Source: Chromatiales bacterium (GTDB lineage: Bacteria > Pseudomonadota > Gammaproteobacteria > JAGRGH01). From it: a stretch of DNA of 64,000 nucleotides. The translations under genes and the position numbers were made by a program. A model generated the notes under the pieces. That model had not been told where the DNA came from. It was given only the letters and a program-made list of their open reading frames with translations, and did not search any database. Of this stretch, positions 15,737 to 26,878 are shown piece by piece; the stretch's first letter is position 1; every line of letters starts with the position of its first letter. The stretch covers positions 1 through 64,000 of the forward strand of contig JAGRGH010000057.1 in assembly GCA_020445605.1 (NCBI GenBank). The letters run 5' to 3'.

Positions 15737-16159
15737 ATGTGGCTGAAGGCATGGCATCTGATCTTCATGGTGACCTGGTTCGCCGGGCTGTTCTATCTGC
15801 CACGGCTGTTTGTCTATCACGCCATGGCCGACGACGCGCCCGGCATCGCGCGCTTCAAGGTCATGGAGCGCAAGCTCTACTACGGCATCATGACCCCGGG
15901 CATGGTGCTGACCGTTGCGCTGGGCGTCTGGATGCTGATCGACTACGCTTGGGCGGCGTTCAGCGCGCAGGGCTGGCTGCACGTGAAGCTCGCGCTGATC
16001 GCGCTGCTGGTGGCCTACCACCTGTATTGCGGCAAGCTGGTGACCGACTTCAAGCACGATCGCAACACCCGCAGCCACGTGTTCTACCGCTGGTTCAACG
16101 AGGCCCCCGTACTGGCACTGATCGCGATCGTCCTGCTCGCGGTGCTAAAGCCGTTCTGA
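15737..16159 (+). CDS. hemJ: Protoporphyrinogen IX oxidase HemJ
   Basis: A 140-residue, four-helix membrane protein beginning MWLKAWHLIFMVTWFAGLFYLP. The conserved histidine of KAWHLIF and the following WFAGLFYLPRLFVYH are the HemJ signature; a conserved lysine lies in HVKLALI. HemJ oxidises protoporphyrinogen IX to protoporphyrin IX in heme synthesis in bacteria lacking HemG and HemY. It follows the DUF4126 gene with a two-base gap, and yggX starts 72 bases downstream. Confidence 0.92.
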   Translation: MWLKAWHLIFMVTWFAGLFYLPRLFVYHAMADDAPGIARFKVMERKLYYGIMTPGMVLTVALGVWMLIDYAWAAFSAQGWLHVKLALIALLVAYHLYCGKLVTDFKHDRNTRSHVFYRWFNEAPVLALIAIVLLAVLKPF

Positions 16160-17524: not shown

Positions 17525-17581
17525 CTGCTCAACGATAGGGTATAGGCAATGTCCGCCGGTTGCGGACAGGGGAAAGGGAAA

Positions 17582-18868
17582 ATGGACGGCATACGCAACG
17601 CAATTGCATCGCTGCTCGTGTGCGCGACGCTCACGGCAGGACCGGTCGCCCGGGCACACGAGAGTAGCGGCTCGGCCTTCGGCGAACAGGTCAATCTGGC
17701 GATCTCACCGCTGGTGGGCGCTACAGTGAACGTGTCTAGCGGCCCGCTTCCCGCGGTTTCAGGTTCCACTCCGCCGGCCTTCATCGATTTGGATAGTGCC
17801 GCCAGCGTGGCGGTCAACGCCACGGTCACGAATGCGGGACTGCCGTTCGCGGTCGGCGTTTTGAACACCGGCCTTCTGACCGTTTCGACCCAGGGCACCG
17901 ACGGCCCGTCCGCGCAGTCCGGCGCCATGGTCAACAATCTCGATCTCGATCTGCTCTCGGCCGCAACCGTCACCACGCTGCTCGCCATGAATGCCACCAC
18001 GGTCAGCACTTTGGCCTCGGTTACCGGGAGTTGCGGCGCGGGCGGACTCACGGCGAGCGGCTCCACGACGCTCGAGGACGCCACGGTAGCCGGCACCCTC
18101 GCCGATCAGGCAAGCGTGACGGGAAGCGTTCTGGCCTCACCGCCGCCAAACTACGTCCTGCTATACGTCAACCTCGGCGCCGCAGGCCGCCTGCGCGTCA
18201 CCCTGAACGAACAAATGGTAGGCGGCAACGGCATCTCCGGCGCGCAGATCACCGTGAACGCGATTCATGTCGAAGCAGTGGGGCCGCTGCTGTCGTCGAT
18301 CCTCGGCTTCTCCGGCAATGTGATCATAGCGAGTTCCACGGCCCAGGCGAGCTGCGCCGAGGCCGATCTTTCCGTGACGGTGACGGATGCACCCGATCCT
18401 GTCGAACTCGGGCAAGTGCTGACCTACACCCTGAATGTTTCCAACGACGGGCCGGATGATGCGGGTGACGTCGAGGTGACGGGCACGCTGCCGCCCGAGG
18501 TGACGCTCCTCAGCATCGCACCGGATCAGGGAACCTGCGCACAGGTATCCGACACGGTGCAGTGCTCCTTCGGCACGCTGGCCAGCGGTGCGACCCGTCA
18601 GATCCGTATCCGGGTGGCTCCCCAGCAGGCCGGCCCGATTCAGAAAACCGCAAGCGTGAGCGGTGATGTGTTCGATCCGAATCCGGACAACAATCAGGAC
18701 ACTGAGGCCAGTCTAGTGACGGAGCCCGTGCCTGGACCACAGTCCGATGATCCCGTGCTGGACCCACAGGCCGACCCCGTTGAATCCATACCCATGCTGG
18801 GCCTTCCCGCTCTGCTGCTGCTGATGTCGTTGCTGACGCTGGCGGCGCGGGCACGCATGCGCGACTGA
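17582..18868 (+). CDS. Choice-of-anchor P / DUF11 surface protein with IPTL-CTERM-like tail
   Basis: A 428-residue exported protein. Residues 1–26 are a signal peptide (AIASLLVCATLTAGPVARA). Residues ~30–260 match the choice-of-anchor P pattern (FGEQVNL, ISPLVGATVNVSSGPLPAV, LLTVSTQG, NNLDLDLL). Residues ~262–370 are a DUF11 domain (DLSVTVTDAPDPVELGQVLTY...NVSNDGPDDAGDV). A Pro-rich linker leads to IPMLGLPALLLLMSLLTLAAR plus a basic end: the motif–hydrophobic helix–Arg layout of exosortase sorting tails. The protein is probably processed and surface-anchored. The ATG at 17582 has a purine-rich ribosome site (aggggaaaggg). A sigma-54 site lies upstream. Confidence 0.78.
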   Translation: MDGIRNAIASLLVCATLTAGPVARAHESSGSAFGEQVNLAISPLVGATVNVSSGPLPAVSGSTPPAFIDLDSAASVAVNATVTNAGLPFAVGVLNTGLLTVSTQGTDGPSAQSGAMVNNLDLDLLSAATVTTLLAMNATTVSTLASVTGSCGAGGLTASGSTTLEDATVAGTLADQASVTGSVLASPPPNYVLLYVNLGAAGRLRVTLNEQMVGGNGISGAQITVNAIHVEAVGPLLSSILGFSGNVIIASSTAQASCAEADLSVTVTDAPDPVELGQVLTYTLNVSNDGPDDAGDVEVTGTLPPEVTLLSIAPDQGTCAQVSDTVQCSFGTLASGATRQIRIRVAPQQAGPIQKTASVSGDVFDPNPDNNQDTEASLVTEPVPGPQSDDPVLDPQADPVESIPMLGLPALLLLMSLLTLAARARMRD

Positions 18869-18939: not shown

Positions 18940-20343
18940 ATGAATCTCAACGTTGCCCTTGCGAAACCGGTCGCGAGTCCGATCGTTCTGATCAGTCCGT
19001 ACGAACTCGGTCGTCAACCGTTTGCGCTGGCCGAGCCCGCCGCGCAGTTGCGCGCAGCCGGACATGGGGTGCGCTGCATCGACCTTTCGCAGCAGTCGCT
19101 CGATGCGGAACAGTTCGCGAACGCGCGCGTCGTCGCGATCTATCTCGGCATGCATACCGCCACCCGCATCGCCCTGGAGGCGCTCGACAAACTGCACGGC
19201 TTCGCGCCGGATGCCACATTCGCCGCCTACGGTCTGTATGCGCCGGTCAACGCCGCGATGCTGCGCGAACGTGGCATCGCGCATGTGTTCGGCGCGGAGT
19301 GCGAAAACGATCTGCTGCAGCTTGCCGCGCAGGTCCTCGGCGGCACGCCGCCGCGCTCGCGCACTCGCGTGGAGTTCATGGTGCCGGACCGCAGCGACCT
19401 GCCCGCACTGTCGCGCTACGCGCAGTTGCAGCTGCCGGACGGCGAGTCGCGCACCGTCGGCTTCGTCGAGGCCTCGCGCGGCTGCAAGCACAAGTGCCGG
19501 CACTGTCCGGTTGTGCCGGTCTATCACGGCCGCTTTCGCGCCGTGCCCGCCGAGATCGTGCTCGCCGACATCCGCCAGCAGGTCGCGGCCGGCGCCCGGC
19601 ACATTTCATTCGGCGATCCGGATTTCCTGAACGGCCCCACGCATGCCGCGCGCATCATCGAACGCATGCACGCGCAGTATCCGCAGCTGACCTGGGATGC
19701 GGTCGTGAAGGTGCAGCACCTGATCGACCATGCGGATCTGCTGCCGCATTTCGCTCTGCGCGGCTGCCTGTTTCTGACCTCGGCGGTGGAGTCGCTCGAC
19801 GATGCCGTGCTCAGGCGCCTGGAGAAGAATCACACGCGCGAGGATTTCGAGCACGCCGTAGGGCTGATGCGCAACGCCGGCATCGGGCTCGCACCGACCT
19901 TCATCCCGTTCACGCCATGGACGTCGATCGACGACTACCTCGATCTGCTGGATACGCTGGTTCGGCTCGAACTCGTGCATGCCGTGCCGCCCGTGCAGCT
20001 CAGCATCCGGCTGCTGATCCCCGCAGGCTCGTACCTGCTCGAACTGCCGGGCTTTCGCGATCAGCTCGACGGGTTCGATGCCAATGCGCTCGGCTACCAG
20101 TGGCGCCATGCCGACCCGCGCATCGACGCGCTGCAGCGTGAGATCCAGGACTGGATCGCCCGCGCGGAACAAGGCAATGTCGAACGTACAAAAATCTTCG
20201 CGGGTATCTGGCGCCGCGCGCACGATGCCGCCGGACGCGCGGCGCCGGCCCTGCCCGAACAGCTGGGCAAGGCGATTCCGGCGATGAGCGAACCCTGGTA
20301 TTGCTGCGCGGAGCCGACCGAACAGCAGCTTGCGTCAATCTGA
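18940..20343 (+). CDS. CCAEP-tail (CUAEP family) B12-binding-like radical SAM protein
   Basis: A 467-residue protein. The N-terminal ~140 residues look like a cobalamin-binding-type Rossmann domain (SPIVLISPYELGRQPFALAEPA...GAECENDLLQL). The radical SAM cluster motif CKHKCRHC is C182, C186 and C189, followed by a TIM-barrel region with ISFGDPDFLN. The protein ends EPWYCCAEPTEQQ near the C-terminus. This matches the CUAEP/CCAEP-tail radical SAM family, in which the first tail cysteine is selenocysteine in some members; here it is Cys (455). The reaction is unknown. The ATG at 18940 was chosen; a GTG six bases earlier is possible. It overlaps the ATP-grasp gene by 14 bases, so they form one functional unit. 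Confidence 0.85.
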   Translation: MNLNVALAKPVASPIVLISPYELGRQPFALAEPAAQLRAAGHGVRCIDLSQQSLDAEQFANARVVAIYLGMHTATRIALEALDKLHGFAPDATFAAYGLYAPVNAAMLRERGIAHVFGAECENDLLQLAAQVLGGTPPRSRTRVEFMVPDRSDLPALSRYAQLQLPDGESRTVGFVEASRGCKHKCRHCPVVPVYHGRFRAVPAEIVLADIRQQVAAGARHISFGDPDFLNGPTHAARIIERMHAQYPQLTWDAVVKVQHLIDHADLLPHFALRGCLFLTSAVESLDDAVLRRLEKNHTREDFEHAVGLMRNAGIGLAPTFIPFTPWTSIDDYLDLLDTLVRLELVHAVPPVQLSIRLLIPAGSYLLELPGFRDQLDGFDANALGYQWRHADPRIDALQREIQDWIARAEQGNVERTKIFAGIWRRAHDAAGRAAPALPEQLGKAIPAMSEPWYCCAEPTEQQLASI

Positions 20344-21601
20344 ACCAACCTTGTACGACTCCCCGCGCGTGGTGCTCGTCGCGCCGCGCTACAGCTACCG
20401 CCTGCCGGCCTATCTCGCGGCCTGCGAAACAACTGGCATCCGCGCACTGATCGCATCAGAAGGCGAACTGGCGCTGTCGGCGCGCTGGCCCGGCGTGCGA
20501 TGCCCGTTCGACCGACCGGATGCGGCCGCGCAGATCATCCATGCCGCACTCGGCCCGGCGGGTGCACAGGCGGTTGTCGCGACGGACGACTCCGCGACCG
20601 AGATCGCCGCACATCTGGCAGCGGCGCTTTCTCTGCCGCACAACCCGCCTGCGGCGATGCATGCGAGTCGCCGGAAAGACCGTGCACGCGCAGTCCTTGC
20701 AAGCCATGGCCTTGCCGTGCCCGATCACCGTGTCGTGCAGCTCCGCAGACCGGTCGCCCCGCAATGCGCAGAGGCGGGCTGGCCGGTCGTGATCAAGCCG
20801 CTTGCGATGGCCGGCAGTCGCGGCGTGATTCGCGCGGACGACGCGGCATCGCTTGAAGCCGCCGCCACCCGCGTTGCACGGATCGTTGCCGAATCAGGCG
20901 ACGAATACGAACGCGAACACGCGCTGGTCGAAGCCTTCGTCGACGGGCCGGAATTCGCACTCGAAGCGGTCCTGCGCGACGGCGAGATCGAAGTGCTGGC
21001 GATCTTCGACAAGCCCGAGCCCATGAACGGGCCATACTTCGAGGAGACCTATTACATTTCACCGGCGCGCATTGATGCAGTGACGCGTCGGGCGCTGATC
21101 GATTCCACCCGCGCGGCCTGTGCTGCGTACGGATTGCGACACGGCCCGGTGCACGCGGAACTGCGGATGCACGATGGACGCGCATGGATCATGGAAGTCG
21201 CGGCGCGCACCATCGGTGGCGACTGCGCCCGGCTGGTCGAACACGCCACGGGGCGAACGCTCGAATCGATCGTCATCGGCAACGCGCTGGGGCTCGAACA
21301 CACGCTGCCCGAGATGACCGGGGCCGCCGGCGTGTTGATGCTGCCGATCCCCGCCGCCGGCATGCTGCGCCGGGTCGAGGGCCTTCTGAACGCACAGGCG
21401 GTCGACGGCGTAAATGAGGTCAGAATCGCGATCCAGCCCGGCAACCTCGTCACGCCGCTGCCCGAGGGTTCAAGTTACCTCGGCTTTGTCTTCGCGACCG
21501 GAGCCGACGCGGATCGCGTCGAGCGCGCGCTGCGCCACGCGCACGCGCAACTGAAGTTCGTGATCGCCCCGCTGTTGCCCGCGGGACTATCGGTCTTTTA
21601 G
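20330..21601 (+). CDS. ATP-grasp domain protein paired with the CCAEP radical SAM enzyme
   Basis: A 423-residue protein with an ATP-grasp fold. It has a pre-ATP-grasp N-terminal domain, then a lysine-containing strand PVVIKPLAMAGSRGVIRAD, EAFVDGPEFALEAVL, and the metal-binding end HAELRMHDGRAWIMEVAART. Such enzymes make acyl-phosphate intermediates and join a carboxylate to an amine, thiol or other nucleophile. The start is uncertain: TTG at 20330 overlaps the upstream gene by 14 bases, and another TTG follows at 20351. With the radical SAM partner it may form or process a modified peptide or small molecule; the substrate is unknown. Confidence 0.8.
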   Translation: MRQSEPTLYDSPRVVLVAPRYSYRLPAYLAACETTGIRALIASEGELALSARWPGVRCPFDRPDAAAQIIHAALGPAGAQAVVATDDSATEIAAHLAAALSLPHNPPAAMHASRRKDRARAVLASHGLAVPDHRVVQLRRPVAPQCAEAGWPVVIKPLAMAGSRGVIRADDAASLEAAATRVARIVAESGDEYEREHALVEAFVDGPEFALEAVLRDGEIEVLAIFDKPEPMNGPYFEETYYISPARIDAVTRRALIDSTRAACAAYGLRHGPVHAELRMHDGRAWIMEVAARTIGGDCARLVEHATGRTLESIVIGNALGLEHTLPEMTGAAGVLMLPIPAAGMLRRVEGLLNAQAVDGVNEVRIAIQPGNLVTPLPEGSSYLGFVFATGADADRVERALRHAHAQLKFVIAPLLPAGLSVF

Positions 21602-21670: not shown

Positions 21671-21840
21671 CTTAACAGGTTGTTGAAAAAGGCCCATCCA
21701 TGGCCTTTTCAACGTCGCAACCGAAAAGCGCGGTTTTCGGTTGCTCACGAAAATCAGGCACTTGCGTGTTCGATTTTGGGCGAGACGTCCCTGTCTCGCG
21801 CTACCAGGCCGTTGAAGAGAGAATTTCAACAGCCTGTTAA
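21671..21840. repeat. Dispersed palindromic element, copy A (170 bp, MITE-like)
   Basis: Terminal inverted repeats ttaacaggttgttgaaa and tttcaacagcctgttaa (17 bases, one mismatch). An inner hairpin at 21716–21743 has arms gcaaccgaaaa / ttttcggttgc. Compared with copies at 44808–44919 and 59858–59964 it carries about 60 extra bases between the hairpin and the right end, including the inverted repeat gcgagac/gtctcgc. It lies between the ATP-grasp gene and an exported operon. Confidence 0.88.
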
Positions 21841-25003: not shown

Positions 25004-25783
25004 ATGCATGACGATTCCGCCGAAAACCCGCCGTTCGCCTACCTGCTCGACCGCGGGCGTCGCGCCCTGCATGCGCTGGCGGTCCTGCTGGCACTGGGCT
25101 TCGGAAATCCCGCCACGGCCGCGCCAATGCTGTTCGACGTGGACATCTCGCTGGATTTCCCCGCGCTGACTTTCATCGATGCGCCGTATACGTTCGACCG
25201 CATCCACGGCACGATGACTGCGGATCCGTTGACGATACCAAGCACCAACGTCGTCGACTGCTTCGGCGACGGAGCAAATCCCTGCGAGGTCTCCAGCATG
25301 TCGCTGGTCATGTCGCTCGGTGGCGCACCGGTCGGCACCATGGAGCTTGCGATCGCCAACACGCTCGACGCGATCTTCATTGGCACCTTCGTCGGCGGCG
25401 GCGGCCCGGTGCCGATTCTGCTGGAAGTAAACAACCTAGTTTACGAGATCGGCCCGATGGGCGACTGCACGGCTGGTCCGGATCAGCTCTGTTTTCTCGG
25501 CGACTGGACATTCAGCGGCCCTGGCGGCCCGTTTCTGTTCTTCGCGCACTTCTCCAGCGCGCCCGGGGATTCGGCGCCATTGACGTACTGGGAAACCAAC
25601 GGCGCGTCCAACTGTGAGGCAGGACTTCAGGAGCAGGTCCCGCCCGGACAGGTCCCCCCGGCCCAATCGGTTGGCTGCGGCACCTTCGACGTGAATGTCC
25701 ATGTACCAGCCCCGGCACCGCTCGCGCTGTTCGGCGTCGGCCTGCTGGCGCTGGTCGTGGCACCAAAACGCCGCGCGACCTGA
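25004..25783 (+). CDS. PEP-CTERM-like exported protein, paralogue 1
   Basis: A 259-residue protein. A signal peptide ends near residue 40 (RRALHALAVLLALGFGNPATAA). The mature part is beta-rich with few charges and includes YTFDRIHGTMTADPLTIPS, VDCFGDG and CEVSSMSL. The C-terminal tail VPAPAPLALFGVGLLALVV plus APKRRAT has the motif–hydrophobic–basic layout of PEP-CTERM signals, with VPAP in place of VPEP. It is probably cut by an exosortase at the inner membrane and released or anchored outside. It is a paralogue of the protein ending at 26878. A sigma-54 promoter lies upstream. Confidence 0.78.
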   Translation: MHDDSAENPPFAYLLDRGRRALHALAVLLALGFGNPATAAPMLFDVDISLDFPALTFIDAPYTFDRIHGTMTADPLTIPSTNVVDCFGDGANPCEVSSMSLVMSLGGAPVGTMELAIANTLDAIFIGTFVGGGGPVPILLEVNNLVYEIGPMGDCTAGPDQLCFLGDWTFSGPGGPFLFFAHFSSAPGDSAPLTYWETNGASNCEAGLQEQVPPGQVPPAQSVGCGTFDVNVHVPAPAPLALFGVGLLALVVAPKRRAT

Positions 25784-26012
25784 GAGCGCAGCATCCAGCT
25801 TGCATCCGCGGCGGTCAGCCGACCGCCGCACGGACCTTACCCCCCGGAAACCGGCGTCAGGACCGGGCCTCACCCCGCCAACCGCTTCGCATCTGTCTGG
25901 CATCTCCCGGTACGAAGGCCCGCGCGCCGGAGGTAAAGCCGGATTTACAGTGCCGTCGCTGTGCAAAAGCGGTTCGTCGCCAAGCCGTTGATCTTGTTGA
26001 CCGCGCGTCTGT
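25784..26012. other. Intergenic region without visible gene
   Basis: About 230 bases between the two PEP-CTERM-like genes. It holds a short inverted pair, gcggtcagccgaccgc (about 25810–25825), perhaps a terminator stem. Nothing else was recognised before the sigma-54 site at 26013. Confidence 0.4.
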
Positions 26013-26027
26013 TGGCACAGATCGTGC
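26013..26027 (+). promoter_or_regulatory. Putative sigma-54 promoter of the second PEP-CTERM-like gene
   Basis: The 15-mer tggcacagatcgtgc, followed by ttt, fits the RpoN consensus with a perfect -24 half (TGGCAC) and the invariant GC at -12. The following ctttccga is also found after the promoter at 24907, indicating that the two regulatory regions share ancestry. Confidence 0.7.
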
Positions 26028-26113
26028 TTTCCGAAATGGCAGAATCAATAATCGCACCCGTGTGTCATACGGGTCAGTCGCGGCGAACGCCGGCTGGAGT
26101 TCTCAACCATGAA

Positions 26114-26878
26114 TTGCAACTTCGGGGCGCCAGCGATGCGCGCCCTTTTCCGCATGCTAAAAAAAACGGACGCCGTGCACTGCGGCCCCTGCTGGGACTG
26201 ATCGCACTGGGCGCTGGGCAACACGTCTACGGCGCAGTGATGCCGTTTGAACTGGACGTGATGTTCAACACCCCGAAAACCATCATCGTCTTCGACCCCT
26301 ACACCATCGACCGGATCACCGGCACGCTCAGCGCCGATCCGACAATCGGTCCAGTGTTGCCGTCCACGGTGGAGTGTTTCGGCGACGGAAGCATCTGCGA
26401 GGTCGCCAGCATGTCGCTGGCCTTTTTCAACGCCGGCAGTCAGGTGGCGATCGCCGACCTCGTGCTGATGTCCGCTGGCGGCCCGACGGCCGTTTTTTCC
26501 GGCACCTGGACCGGTAGCGGGATGCCCGAAGCAATCACACTCAACCTCGGCGATCTGTACTACGACATTGATGGCATGGGGTGTTCGCCCGCTGCCGACT
26601 CGTTGTGCGATGGCGCAAATTGGGTGTTTTCCTGGGCCGGCCCGTTCTTGGACTTCACCTACATCGCGAGCGGCGTACCTGGACCTGTGGTTGTCAATAC
26701 CGCCTACACACCGCAGTTGCCAGAAAGTTCCTGTGAAGGCGATGCAATGTTTCCCTGCGGCTCGTTTGACATCGACGTGGCTAGCGCCCCCGCCGCGGCC
26801 CCGACACCGACCCCGATCGCCCTGTTCGGCATCGGCCTGCTGGCGCTGGTTGCTGCACCAAAGCGCCGCAGGGCCTGA
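26114..26878 (+). CDS. PEP-CTERM-like exported protein, paralogue 2, with unusual start region
   Basis: About 254 residues from a TTG at 26114. The sequence aligns with paralogue 1 throughout: GRRALRPLLGLIALGAG signal, YTIDRITGTLSADPTIGP, ECFGDGSICEVASMSL, and the tail APTPTPIALFGIGLLALVA plus APKRRRA. The frame has no ATG close to the signal peptide. A better-placed ATG at 26109, with ggag nine bases upstream and 82 bases from the promoter, is in another frame. That frame enters the signal peptide only by a -1 shift at the run of eight A (26159–26166). So either TTG initiates or slippage restores the frame. Role: probable exosortase-processed surface protein. Confidence 0.72.
   Translation: MQLRGASDARPFPHAKKNGRRALRPLLGLIALGAGQHVYGAVMPFELDVMFNTPKTIIVFDPYTIDRITGTLSADPTIGPVLPSTVECFGDGSICEVASMSLAFFNAGSQVAIADLVLMSAGGPTAVFSGTWTGSGMPEAITLNLGDLYYDIDGMGCSPAADSLCDGANWVFSWAGPFLDFTYIASGVPGPVVVNTAYTPQLPESSCEGDAMFPCGSFDIDVASAPAAAPTPTPIALFGIGLLALVAAPKRRRA

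What the first reader, a model, noticed from the sequence alone, without database searches (positions are those of the whole stretch)
18940..21601. CCAEP-tail radical SAM enzyme overlapping an ATP-grasp gene: uncharacterised two-enzyme module
The radical SAM protein ends in CCAEP, the cysteine form of a tail that carries selenocysteine in relatives. The next gene, overlapping by 14 bases, is an ATP-grasp ligase. No precursor peptide gene is visible beside them. Radical SAM plus ATP-grasp pairs often make or modify peptides or small metabolites, but the chemistry of this family is not described to my knowledge. The conserved CC near the C-terminus might be catalytic or bind a cluster.
Basis: partly seen in the sequence, partly recalled or inferred. 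Interest (0 to 1): 0.7.

Follow-up and report, generated by a model that had tools for sequence, protein, structure and literature searches.

The report
ArsL-like radical enzyme with peptide ligase
Two neighbouring bacterial genes appear to work together: one encodes a radical enzyme whose nearest characterised relative attaches part of S-adenosylmethionine to arsenic, the other a ligase that probably joins the resulting unusual amino acid to a partner; the pair recurs in many beta- and gammaproteobacteria, and its product is unknown.

Summary
The radical SAM enzyme (18940-20343) belongs to NCBIfam NF040546 (597 bits, cut-off 500). Its tail WYCCAEP lies eight residues from the C-terminus and is kept in 95 of 95 relatives; a Thermomicrobium homologue reads WFC-TGA-AEP (selenocysteine form). 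The ATP-grasp gene probably starts at 20351, 7 bases after the rSAM stop, so the 14-base overlap is doubtful.

The pairing is real. In 369 class genomes the ligase occurs in 18 of 22 with the rSAM and 47 of 347 without it. The genes came side by side about five separate times, in different orders.

[quoted passage not shown] ArsL also ends in a paired-cysteine tail (RCCLKC), and ArsL clusters in Priestia, Alicyclobacillus, Klebsiella and Pantoea carry an ATP-grasp ligase too. The CCAEP branch lacks arsenic-gene context.

Best reading: an ArsL-type enzyme puts an ACP group on a soft nucleophile held by the CC/CU tail, and an L-amino-acid-ligase-type enzyme forms an amide with the product. The functional link is well supported; the ACP chemistry is inferred; the nucleophile is unknown.

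The parts
18940..20343 (+). CCAEP-tail radical SAM enzyme (467 aa), ArsL-related
   Evidence: NF040546 3e-179, 597 bits, above cut-off; next family NF040542 ArsL, 258 bits, below cut-off; AlphaFold2 model pLDDT 90, nearest PDB fold AprD4 6fd2
19483..19506 (+). CxxxCxxC radical SAM cluster motif (C182, C186, C189)
   Evidence: invariant in the CCAEP family and in ArsL
20296..20316 (+). WYCCAEP tail motif; C455 and C456 aligned with the CC of RCCLKC in ArsL; second C is Sec (TGA) in Thermomicrobium roseum
20351..21601 (+). ATP-grasp ligase of the L-amino acid ligase type (ATP-grasp_4 + LAL_C2); ORF is open from TTG 20330, likelier start TTG 20351
   Evidence: Pfam ATP-grasp_4 97 bits, LAL_C2 64 bits; PDB 3vot L-amino acid ligase BL00235, 145 bits; start judged from homologues
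21152..21220 (+). conserved ligase motif HAELR...MEVAARTIGG, aligned with HTELR...IEVGARIGG of BL00235
16184..16504 (+). yggX-type Fe(2+) trafficking gene, the usual chromosomal neighbour of this ATP-grasp gene in gammaproteobacteria (context, not shown to be part of the pathway)
   Evidence: PF04362 100 bits; recurrent neighbour of the ligase gene
15740..16159 (+). hemJ-like (UPF0093) gene, also a recurrent neighbour of the ligase gene in relatives (context)
   Evidence: recurrence seen (cluster c6)

Best explanation
A two-step pathway to an unusual amino acid and its peptide conjugate. Step 1 (inferred from homology): the radical SAM enzyme works like ArsL. It cleaves SAM so that the 3-amino-3-carboxypropyl group is transferred to a soft, thiophilic nucleophile held by the vicinal Cys-Cys (Cys-Sec in some relatives) of the C-terminal WYC[C/U]AEP tail, giving an amino acid of the form 2-amino-4-X-butanoate, a methionine/homocysteine/glutamate-like analogue. 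Step 2 (ligase class shown by sequence, substrate inferred): the L-amino-acid-ligase-type ATP-grasp enzyme activates a carboxylate with ATP and joins that amino acid to another amino acid or amine. Shown here: family assignments, tail conservation, relation to ArsL, the association between the two genes, and the presence of ATP-grasp ligases in ArsL clusters. Inferred: ACP chemistry, the role of the tail, and the order of steps. The nucleophile X is open; arsenite is possible, but the gene context does not point to it.
For: The closest family to the rSAM is ArsL, in both directions: window protein 258 bits on ArsL, ArsL proteins 336-364 bits on the CUAEP model, next family HpnR under 80 bits. 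Shared invariant residues include CxxxCxxC and the two tail cysteines C455/C456 aligned with RCCLKC. ArsL chemistry is from PMC8552651 and is cited as ACP-radical chemistry in PMC11048331. The ligase's best solved relative is L-amino acid ligase BL00235, with a LAL_C2 domain. Association: adjacent on the same strand within 200 bases in 48 loci (46 downstream of the rSAM, 2 upstream); the ligase is in 18 of 22 rSAM-positive and 47 of 347 rSAM-negative class genomes, Fisher p about 1e-11; at least 10 changes of adjacency on the rSAM tree and about 5 on the ligase tree, with different gene orders. ATP-grasp ligases sit in ArsL clusters of Priestia, Alicyclobacillus, Klebsiella and Pantoea.
Against: No activity was tested. 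The CCAEP branch fails the ArsL cut-off and differs from ArsL at many conserved positions (for example GDPDF against IDADF, H188, P190, tail length). No arsenic gene lies beside the CCAEP loci except one ArsM-like protein in L090, whereas all seven ArsL loci read have them. The ligases of the two branches are only 23-25% identical, and the window ligase is closer to BL00235, so the two partnerships may have arisen separately. The ligase occurs without the rSAM in 47 sampled genomes, so it has a role of its own or another substrate source. The Fisher test does not correct for kinship.
Confidence: 0.42

Rival explanations
1. The CCAEP enzyme is an arsenic enzyme like ArsL: it makes trivalent hydroxyarsinothricin or a close analogue from background arsenite, and the ligase makes an arsinothricin-type peptide.
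For: ArsL is the nearest characterised family; paired thiols/selenols bind As(III) well (general chemistry); ArsL clusters also have ATP-grasp genes; one CCAEP locus has an ArsM-like neighbour (L090).
Against: No ArsR, ArsQ, ArsN1, ArsM or arsenic transporter homologue beside about 95 CCAEP loci apart from that one, whereas all seven ArsL loci read have arsenic genes; conserved differences in the radical SAM core.
Confidence: 0.17
2. The tail is a swinging redox arm (as in thioredoxin reductases with a C-terminal Cys-Sec) or an H-atom donor, and the enzyme performs ordinary 5'-deoxyadenosyl-radical chemistry on a substrate made or used by the ligase.
For: C-terminal Cys-Cys/Cys-Sec pairs in flexible tails are a known redox device (general knowledge); tail confidence is lower than the core in the model (pLDDT 77-80); nearest folds are AprD4 and OxsB, which use the 5'-deoxyadenosyl radical (mechanism from general knowledge).
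Against: The closest sequence family is ArsL, with paired tail cysteines at the aligned position; AprD4 and OxsB share only 16-18% identity.
Confidence: 0.25
3. The ligase acts first and makes a dipeptide or amide that the radical SAM enzyme then modifies.
For: The ligase is more widespread than the rSAM and has its own chromosomal home beside erpA-like and yggX genes; in L091/L107 the order is erpA-like, ligase, rSAM.
Against: In most operons the rSAM comes first (46 loci), though gene order is weak evidence; ArsL acts on a free small nucleophile.
Confidence: 0.25
4. The two genes co-occur by shared ancestry and gene order only, without a common pathway.
For: 24 relatives with enough flanking sequence lack an adjacent ligase; the ligase occurs alone in many genomes.
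Against: Repeated juxtaposition in different orientations; 18 of 22 against 47 of 347 co-occurrence, often with the genes far apart.
Confidence: 0.1

Closest known systems
ArsL (NCBIfam NF040542, arsinothricin biosynthesis radical SAM protein, RCCLKC tail)
   Same: Similar length, canonical CxxxCxxC, shared core residues, vicinal cysteines in the C-terminal tail; an ATP-grasp ligase in many clusters.
   Different: The CCAEP family has a longer C-terminal region with WYC[C/U]AEP, scores below the ArsL cut-off, lacks arsenic-gene context, and has conserved core differences.
CUAEP/CCAEP-tail radical SAM (seleno)protein (NCBIfam NF040546)
   Same: Window protein is a full-length member above cut-off; Cys form of the tail.
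   Different: The family has a name but no function was found described; the partner ligase is not part of its definition as far as seen here.
L-amino acid ligase BL00235 (PDB 3vot) and relatives (BacD, DdaF)
   Same: ATP-grasp_4 plus LAL_C2 architecture, 145-bit match over residues 60-408, conserved HxELR / EVxAR motifs.
   Different: A distinct proteobacterial group with its own genomic partners; substrate unknown.
ATP-grasp ligases in RCCLKC/ArsL clusters (Priestia, Alicyclobacillus, Klebsiella, Pantoea)
   Same: Same enzyme class beside an ArsL-family radical SAM enzyme.
   Different: Only 23-25% identical to the window ligase; weak or no LAL_C2 match; the clusters carry arsenic genes such as ArsR, ArsM, aquaporin or ArsN1.
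AprD4 and OxsB (nearest solved folds)
   Same: B12-binding-like N-terminal domain plus radical SAM core; no cobalamin signature evident in the window protein.
   Different: 16-18% identity; different substrates; no matching CC tail known to me.

Membership tests
CUAEP/CCAEP-tail radical SAM (NF040546) | full-length match above the curated cut-off (500 bits) | tested here: met
   597 bits, residues 15-465
CUAEP/CCAEP-tail radical SAM (NF040546) | C[U/C]AEP tail | tested here: met
   WYCCAEP at 453-459; 95 of 95 relatives; TGA form in T. roseum
ArsL (NF040542) | match above the curated cut-off (450 bits) | tested here: not met
   258 bits
ArsL (NF040542) | RCCLKC tail at the C-terminus | tested here: not met
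   WYCCAEP instead; only the CC pair is shared
ArsL (NF040542) | arsenic gene context | tested here: not met
   no homologues of the ArsL-cluster arsenic genes beside CCAEP loci, one ArsM-like exception
ArsL (NF040542) | ACP transfer from SAM to As(III) | not testable with these tools
   needs enzyme assay
Radical SAM superfamily | CxxxCxxC and Pfam PF04055 | tested here: met
   C182/C186/C189; PF04055 44 bits
Cobalamin-dependent radical SAM | B12-binding domain above Pfam cut-off and DxHxxG motif | tested here: not met
   PF02310 17.8 bits against 32.1; no DxHxxG seen in the N-terminal domain by reading the sequence
L-amino acid ligase | ATP-grasp_4 plus LAL_C2 and match to solved LALs | tested here: met
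L-amino acid ligase | dipeptide-forming activity | not testable with these tools
   needs assay
Selenoprotein (relatives) | in-frame TGA with conserved sequence after it | tested here: met
   T. roseum WFC-TGA-AEPL; one case only
Selenoprotein (relatives) | SECIS hairpin after the TGA | tested here: inconclusive
   a hairpin lies about 20 nt after TGA but z-score is only -1.2
RiPP pathway | conserved precursor peptide gene | tested here: inconclusive
   no recurring small ORF of at least 50 aa that looks like a precursor; the recurring small genes were yggX-like and GBBH-like_N; shorter ORFs not examined

The most novel reading that the evidence does not exclude
A second branch of ArsL-type radical SAM enzymes, some with selenocysteine in the substrate-binding tail, makes a carbon-heteroatom amino acid other than an arsenical (for example on selenium, sulfur, phosphorus or another metalloid) and couples it to an amino acid with a dedicated ligase, as part of the ordinary metabolism of many beta- and gammaproteobacteria, several of them sulfur or iron oxidisers by name.
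Probability: 0.3. Interest if true: 0.85.

Novelty: new variant of a known kind. Interest (0 to 1): 0.6.

Why it matters
ArsL is described as an unusual radical SAM enzyme because it moves the ACP group of SAM to arsenic. A large sister family with a paired thiol or thiol/selenol tail, tied to an amino acid ligase and found without arsenic genes, would extend that chemistry to another element or acceptor and predicts an undescribed amino acid and conjugate in common environmental bacteria. It also gives a testable role for a selenocysteine whose function is unknown, and it draws attention to ATP-grasp ligases in ArsL clusters that may make arsinothricin peptides, by analogy with phosphinothricin tripeptides (general knowledge).

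Tried and rejected
Cluster-binding role for the CC tail: not favoured, the cluster ligands are the canonical CxxxCxxC. Cobalamin dependence: below cut-off, motif not seen. RiPP pathway: no recurring precursor gene. Universal third gene: none; yggX, an erpA-like gene, hemJ and a GBBH-like_N gene recur only within lineages and read as chromosomal neighbourhood. Viral copies: no relatives in viral contigs by protein; four hits to a Sec-form DNA pattern encode no relative. Literature: no open paper names CUAEP, CCAEP or RCCLKC in this sense or links ArsL with ATP-grasp; the selenoproteome review does not mention the family by these names. The paper on ArsL enzymology cited in PMC11048331 is not held. 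Measuring the distance from tail to cluster in the model was not possible because coordinates are not returned. My early note of 19 of 22 ligase-positive rSAM genomes was a miscount; it is 18 of 22.

Full report
WHAT IS THERE. The window holds an intact radical SAM gene at 18940-20343 (467 aa) with CxxxCxxC at C182/C186/C189 and the tail WYCCAEP at residues 453-459, followed by TEQQLASI. NCBIfam assigns it to NF040546, 'CUAEP/CCAEP-tail radical SAM (seleno)protein', 597 bits against a cut-off of 500. The next gene is an ATP-grasp ligase ending at 21601.

THE TAIL. The class-genome members found by profile search carry WYCCAEP wherever the C-terminus was read; with the named genomes the count is 95 of 95 W[YF]CC[AS]EP. 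The 80 named loci were fetched with WYCCAEP as one of two patterns, so only the first set is unbiased. A Thermomicrobium roseum homologue (764 bits on NF040546) reads SESWFC-TGA-AEPL in frame, the selenocysteine form; a hairpin follows the TGA but is not significant against shuffles (z = -1.2). The window's genome has no selD above cut-off, in keeping with the cysteine form.

The second-best family is ArsL (258 bits), far ahead of any other family (40 bits or less), and ArsL proteins give 336-364 bits on the CUAEP model while other families stay below 80. A tree puts ArsL and the CUAEP/CCAEP enzymes on opposite sides of a fully supported branch. Invariant residues shared by 95 CCAEP and 6 ArsL proteins include CxxxCxxC and the two vicinal tail cysteines; ArsL ends in RCCLKC. 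ArsL is reported to move the 3-amino-3-carboxypropyl group of SAM to arsenite (PMC8552651; cited as ACP chemistry in PMC11048331). From memory, and not checked here, later work on ArsL assigns arsenite binding to RCCLKC.

THE PAIRING. By tblastn on 102 loci, the ligase lies on the same strand within 200 bases in 48 (46 downstream, 2 upstream), and further off or on the other strand in 6 more. In a sample of 369 class genomes the ligase (E < 1e-50) is in 18 of 22 with the rSAM and 47 of 347 without it (Fisher odds ratio 29, p = 1e-11); the test ignores kinship, but 13 of 14 rSAM-positive families also contain the ligase. On the ligase tree, nearness to the rSAM needs five changes, and the arrangements include rSAM-ligase, ligase-rSAM and convergent; on the rSAM tree adjacency needs ten changes. 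These counts include possible losses. In gammaproteobacteria the ligase often has a home between an erpA-like Fe-S carrier gene and yggX, near hemJ; the window keeps hemJ and yggX 3-5 kb upstream. The simplest reading is that the ligase locus is older and the rSAM gene repeatedly moved next to it. This is the strongest evidence that the two act together.

THE LIGASE. ATP-grasp_4 plus LAL_C2; best solved relative L-amino acid ligase BL00235 (3vot, 145 bits). This class joins an amino acid carboxylate to an amine using ATP (general knowledge of the family).

ATP-GRASP IN ARSL CLUSTERS. Of seven ArsL/RCCLKC records read, six (two Priestia, Alicyclobacillus, Klebsiella, two Pantoea) carry an ATP-grasp gene in the cluster and one (Pseudomonas amygdali) does not. 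The two compared are 23-25% identical to the window's, so this is the same kind of partner, perhaps recruited separately. All seven loci hold arsenic genes; CCAEP loci do not, apart from one ArsM-like protein in L090.

STRUCTURE. AlphaFold2: mean pLDDT 90, tail 77-80. Nearest solved folds: AprD4 and OxsB, TM 0.66-0.67; B12-like N-terminal domain without Pfam-level support for cobalamin.

MECHANISM. Most likely: ACP transfer to a soft nucleophile held by the CC/CU tail, then amide formation by the ligase. My step-wise estimates: functional link 0.85; ligase forms an amide with an amino acid 0.8; ACP transfer 0.5; tail binds the acceptor 0.5; acceptor is arsenite 0.2. Rivals are a redox or H-donor tail with ordinary deoxyadenosyl chemistry, or the ligase acting first.

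NOVELTY. The rSAM family is named in NCBIfam, but no description of its function was found in the open literature searched. The ArsL relation, the repeated juxtaposition with a ligase, and the ATP-grasp genes in ArsL clusters make it a new variant of a known kind.

Noticed in passing
21672-21840: A 169-base element with imperfect terminal inverted repeats (TTAACAGG...CCTGTTAA) just downstream of the ligase gene; about 39 further copies at roughly 89-94% identity elsewhere in the genome (only 40 of 114 candidates were scored), MITE-like.
   Followed up: partly
L146, L148, L181, L182, L183, L184: ArsL/RCCLKC clusters on plasmids of Priestia, Alicyclobacillus, Klebsiella and Pantoea include an ATP-grasp ligase and a GTP-binding protein gene, usually with an aquaporin or MIP channel gene; the ligase may make arsinothricin peptides.
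   Followed up: partly
L145:8369-8371: The T. roseum CUAEP protein is annotated as ending at a TGA that is probably selenocysteine; the reading frame continues AEPLEDPSGPVASQVRMVDQPLR.
   Followed up: partly
17549-18868; 25004-25783; 25961-26878: A DUF11 protein with a hydrophobic/basic C-terminal end, and two tandem paralogous secreted-looking proteins with C-termini of the form ...ALFGxGLLALVxAPKRR, which look like protein-sorting tails.
   Followed up: no
L093, L108: MAG records titled 'Bordetella parapertussis' carry CCAEP loci like those of environmental betaproteobacteria; the titles may be mislabelled.
   Followed up: no
L164:6528-6932 and other gammaproteobacterial loci: Conserved chromosomal block erpA-like (Fe-S_biosyn) - ATP-grasp ligase - yggX - hemJ in genomes with and without the radical SAM gene; the ligase's role without the rSAM is unexplained.
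   Followed up: partly
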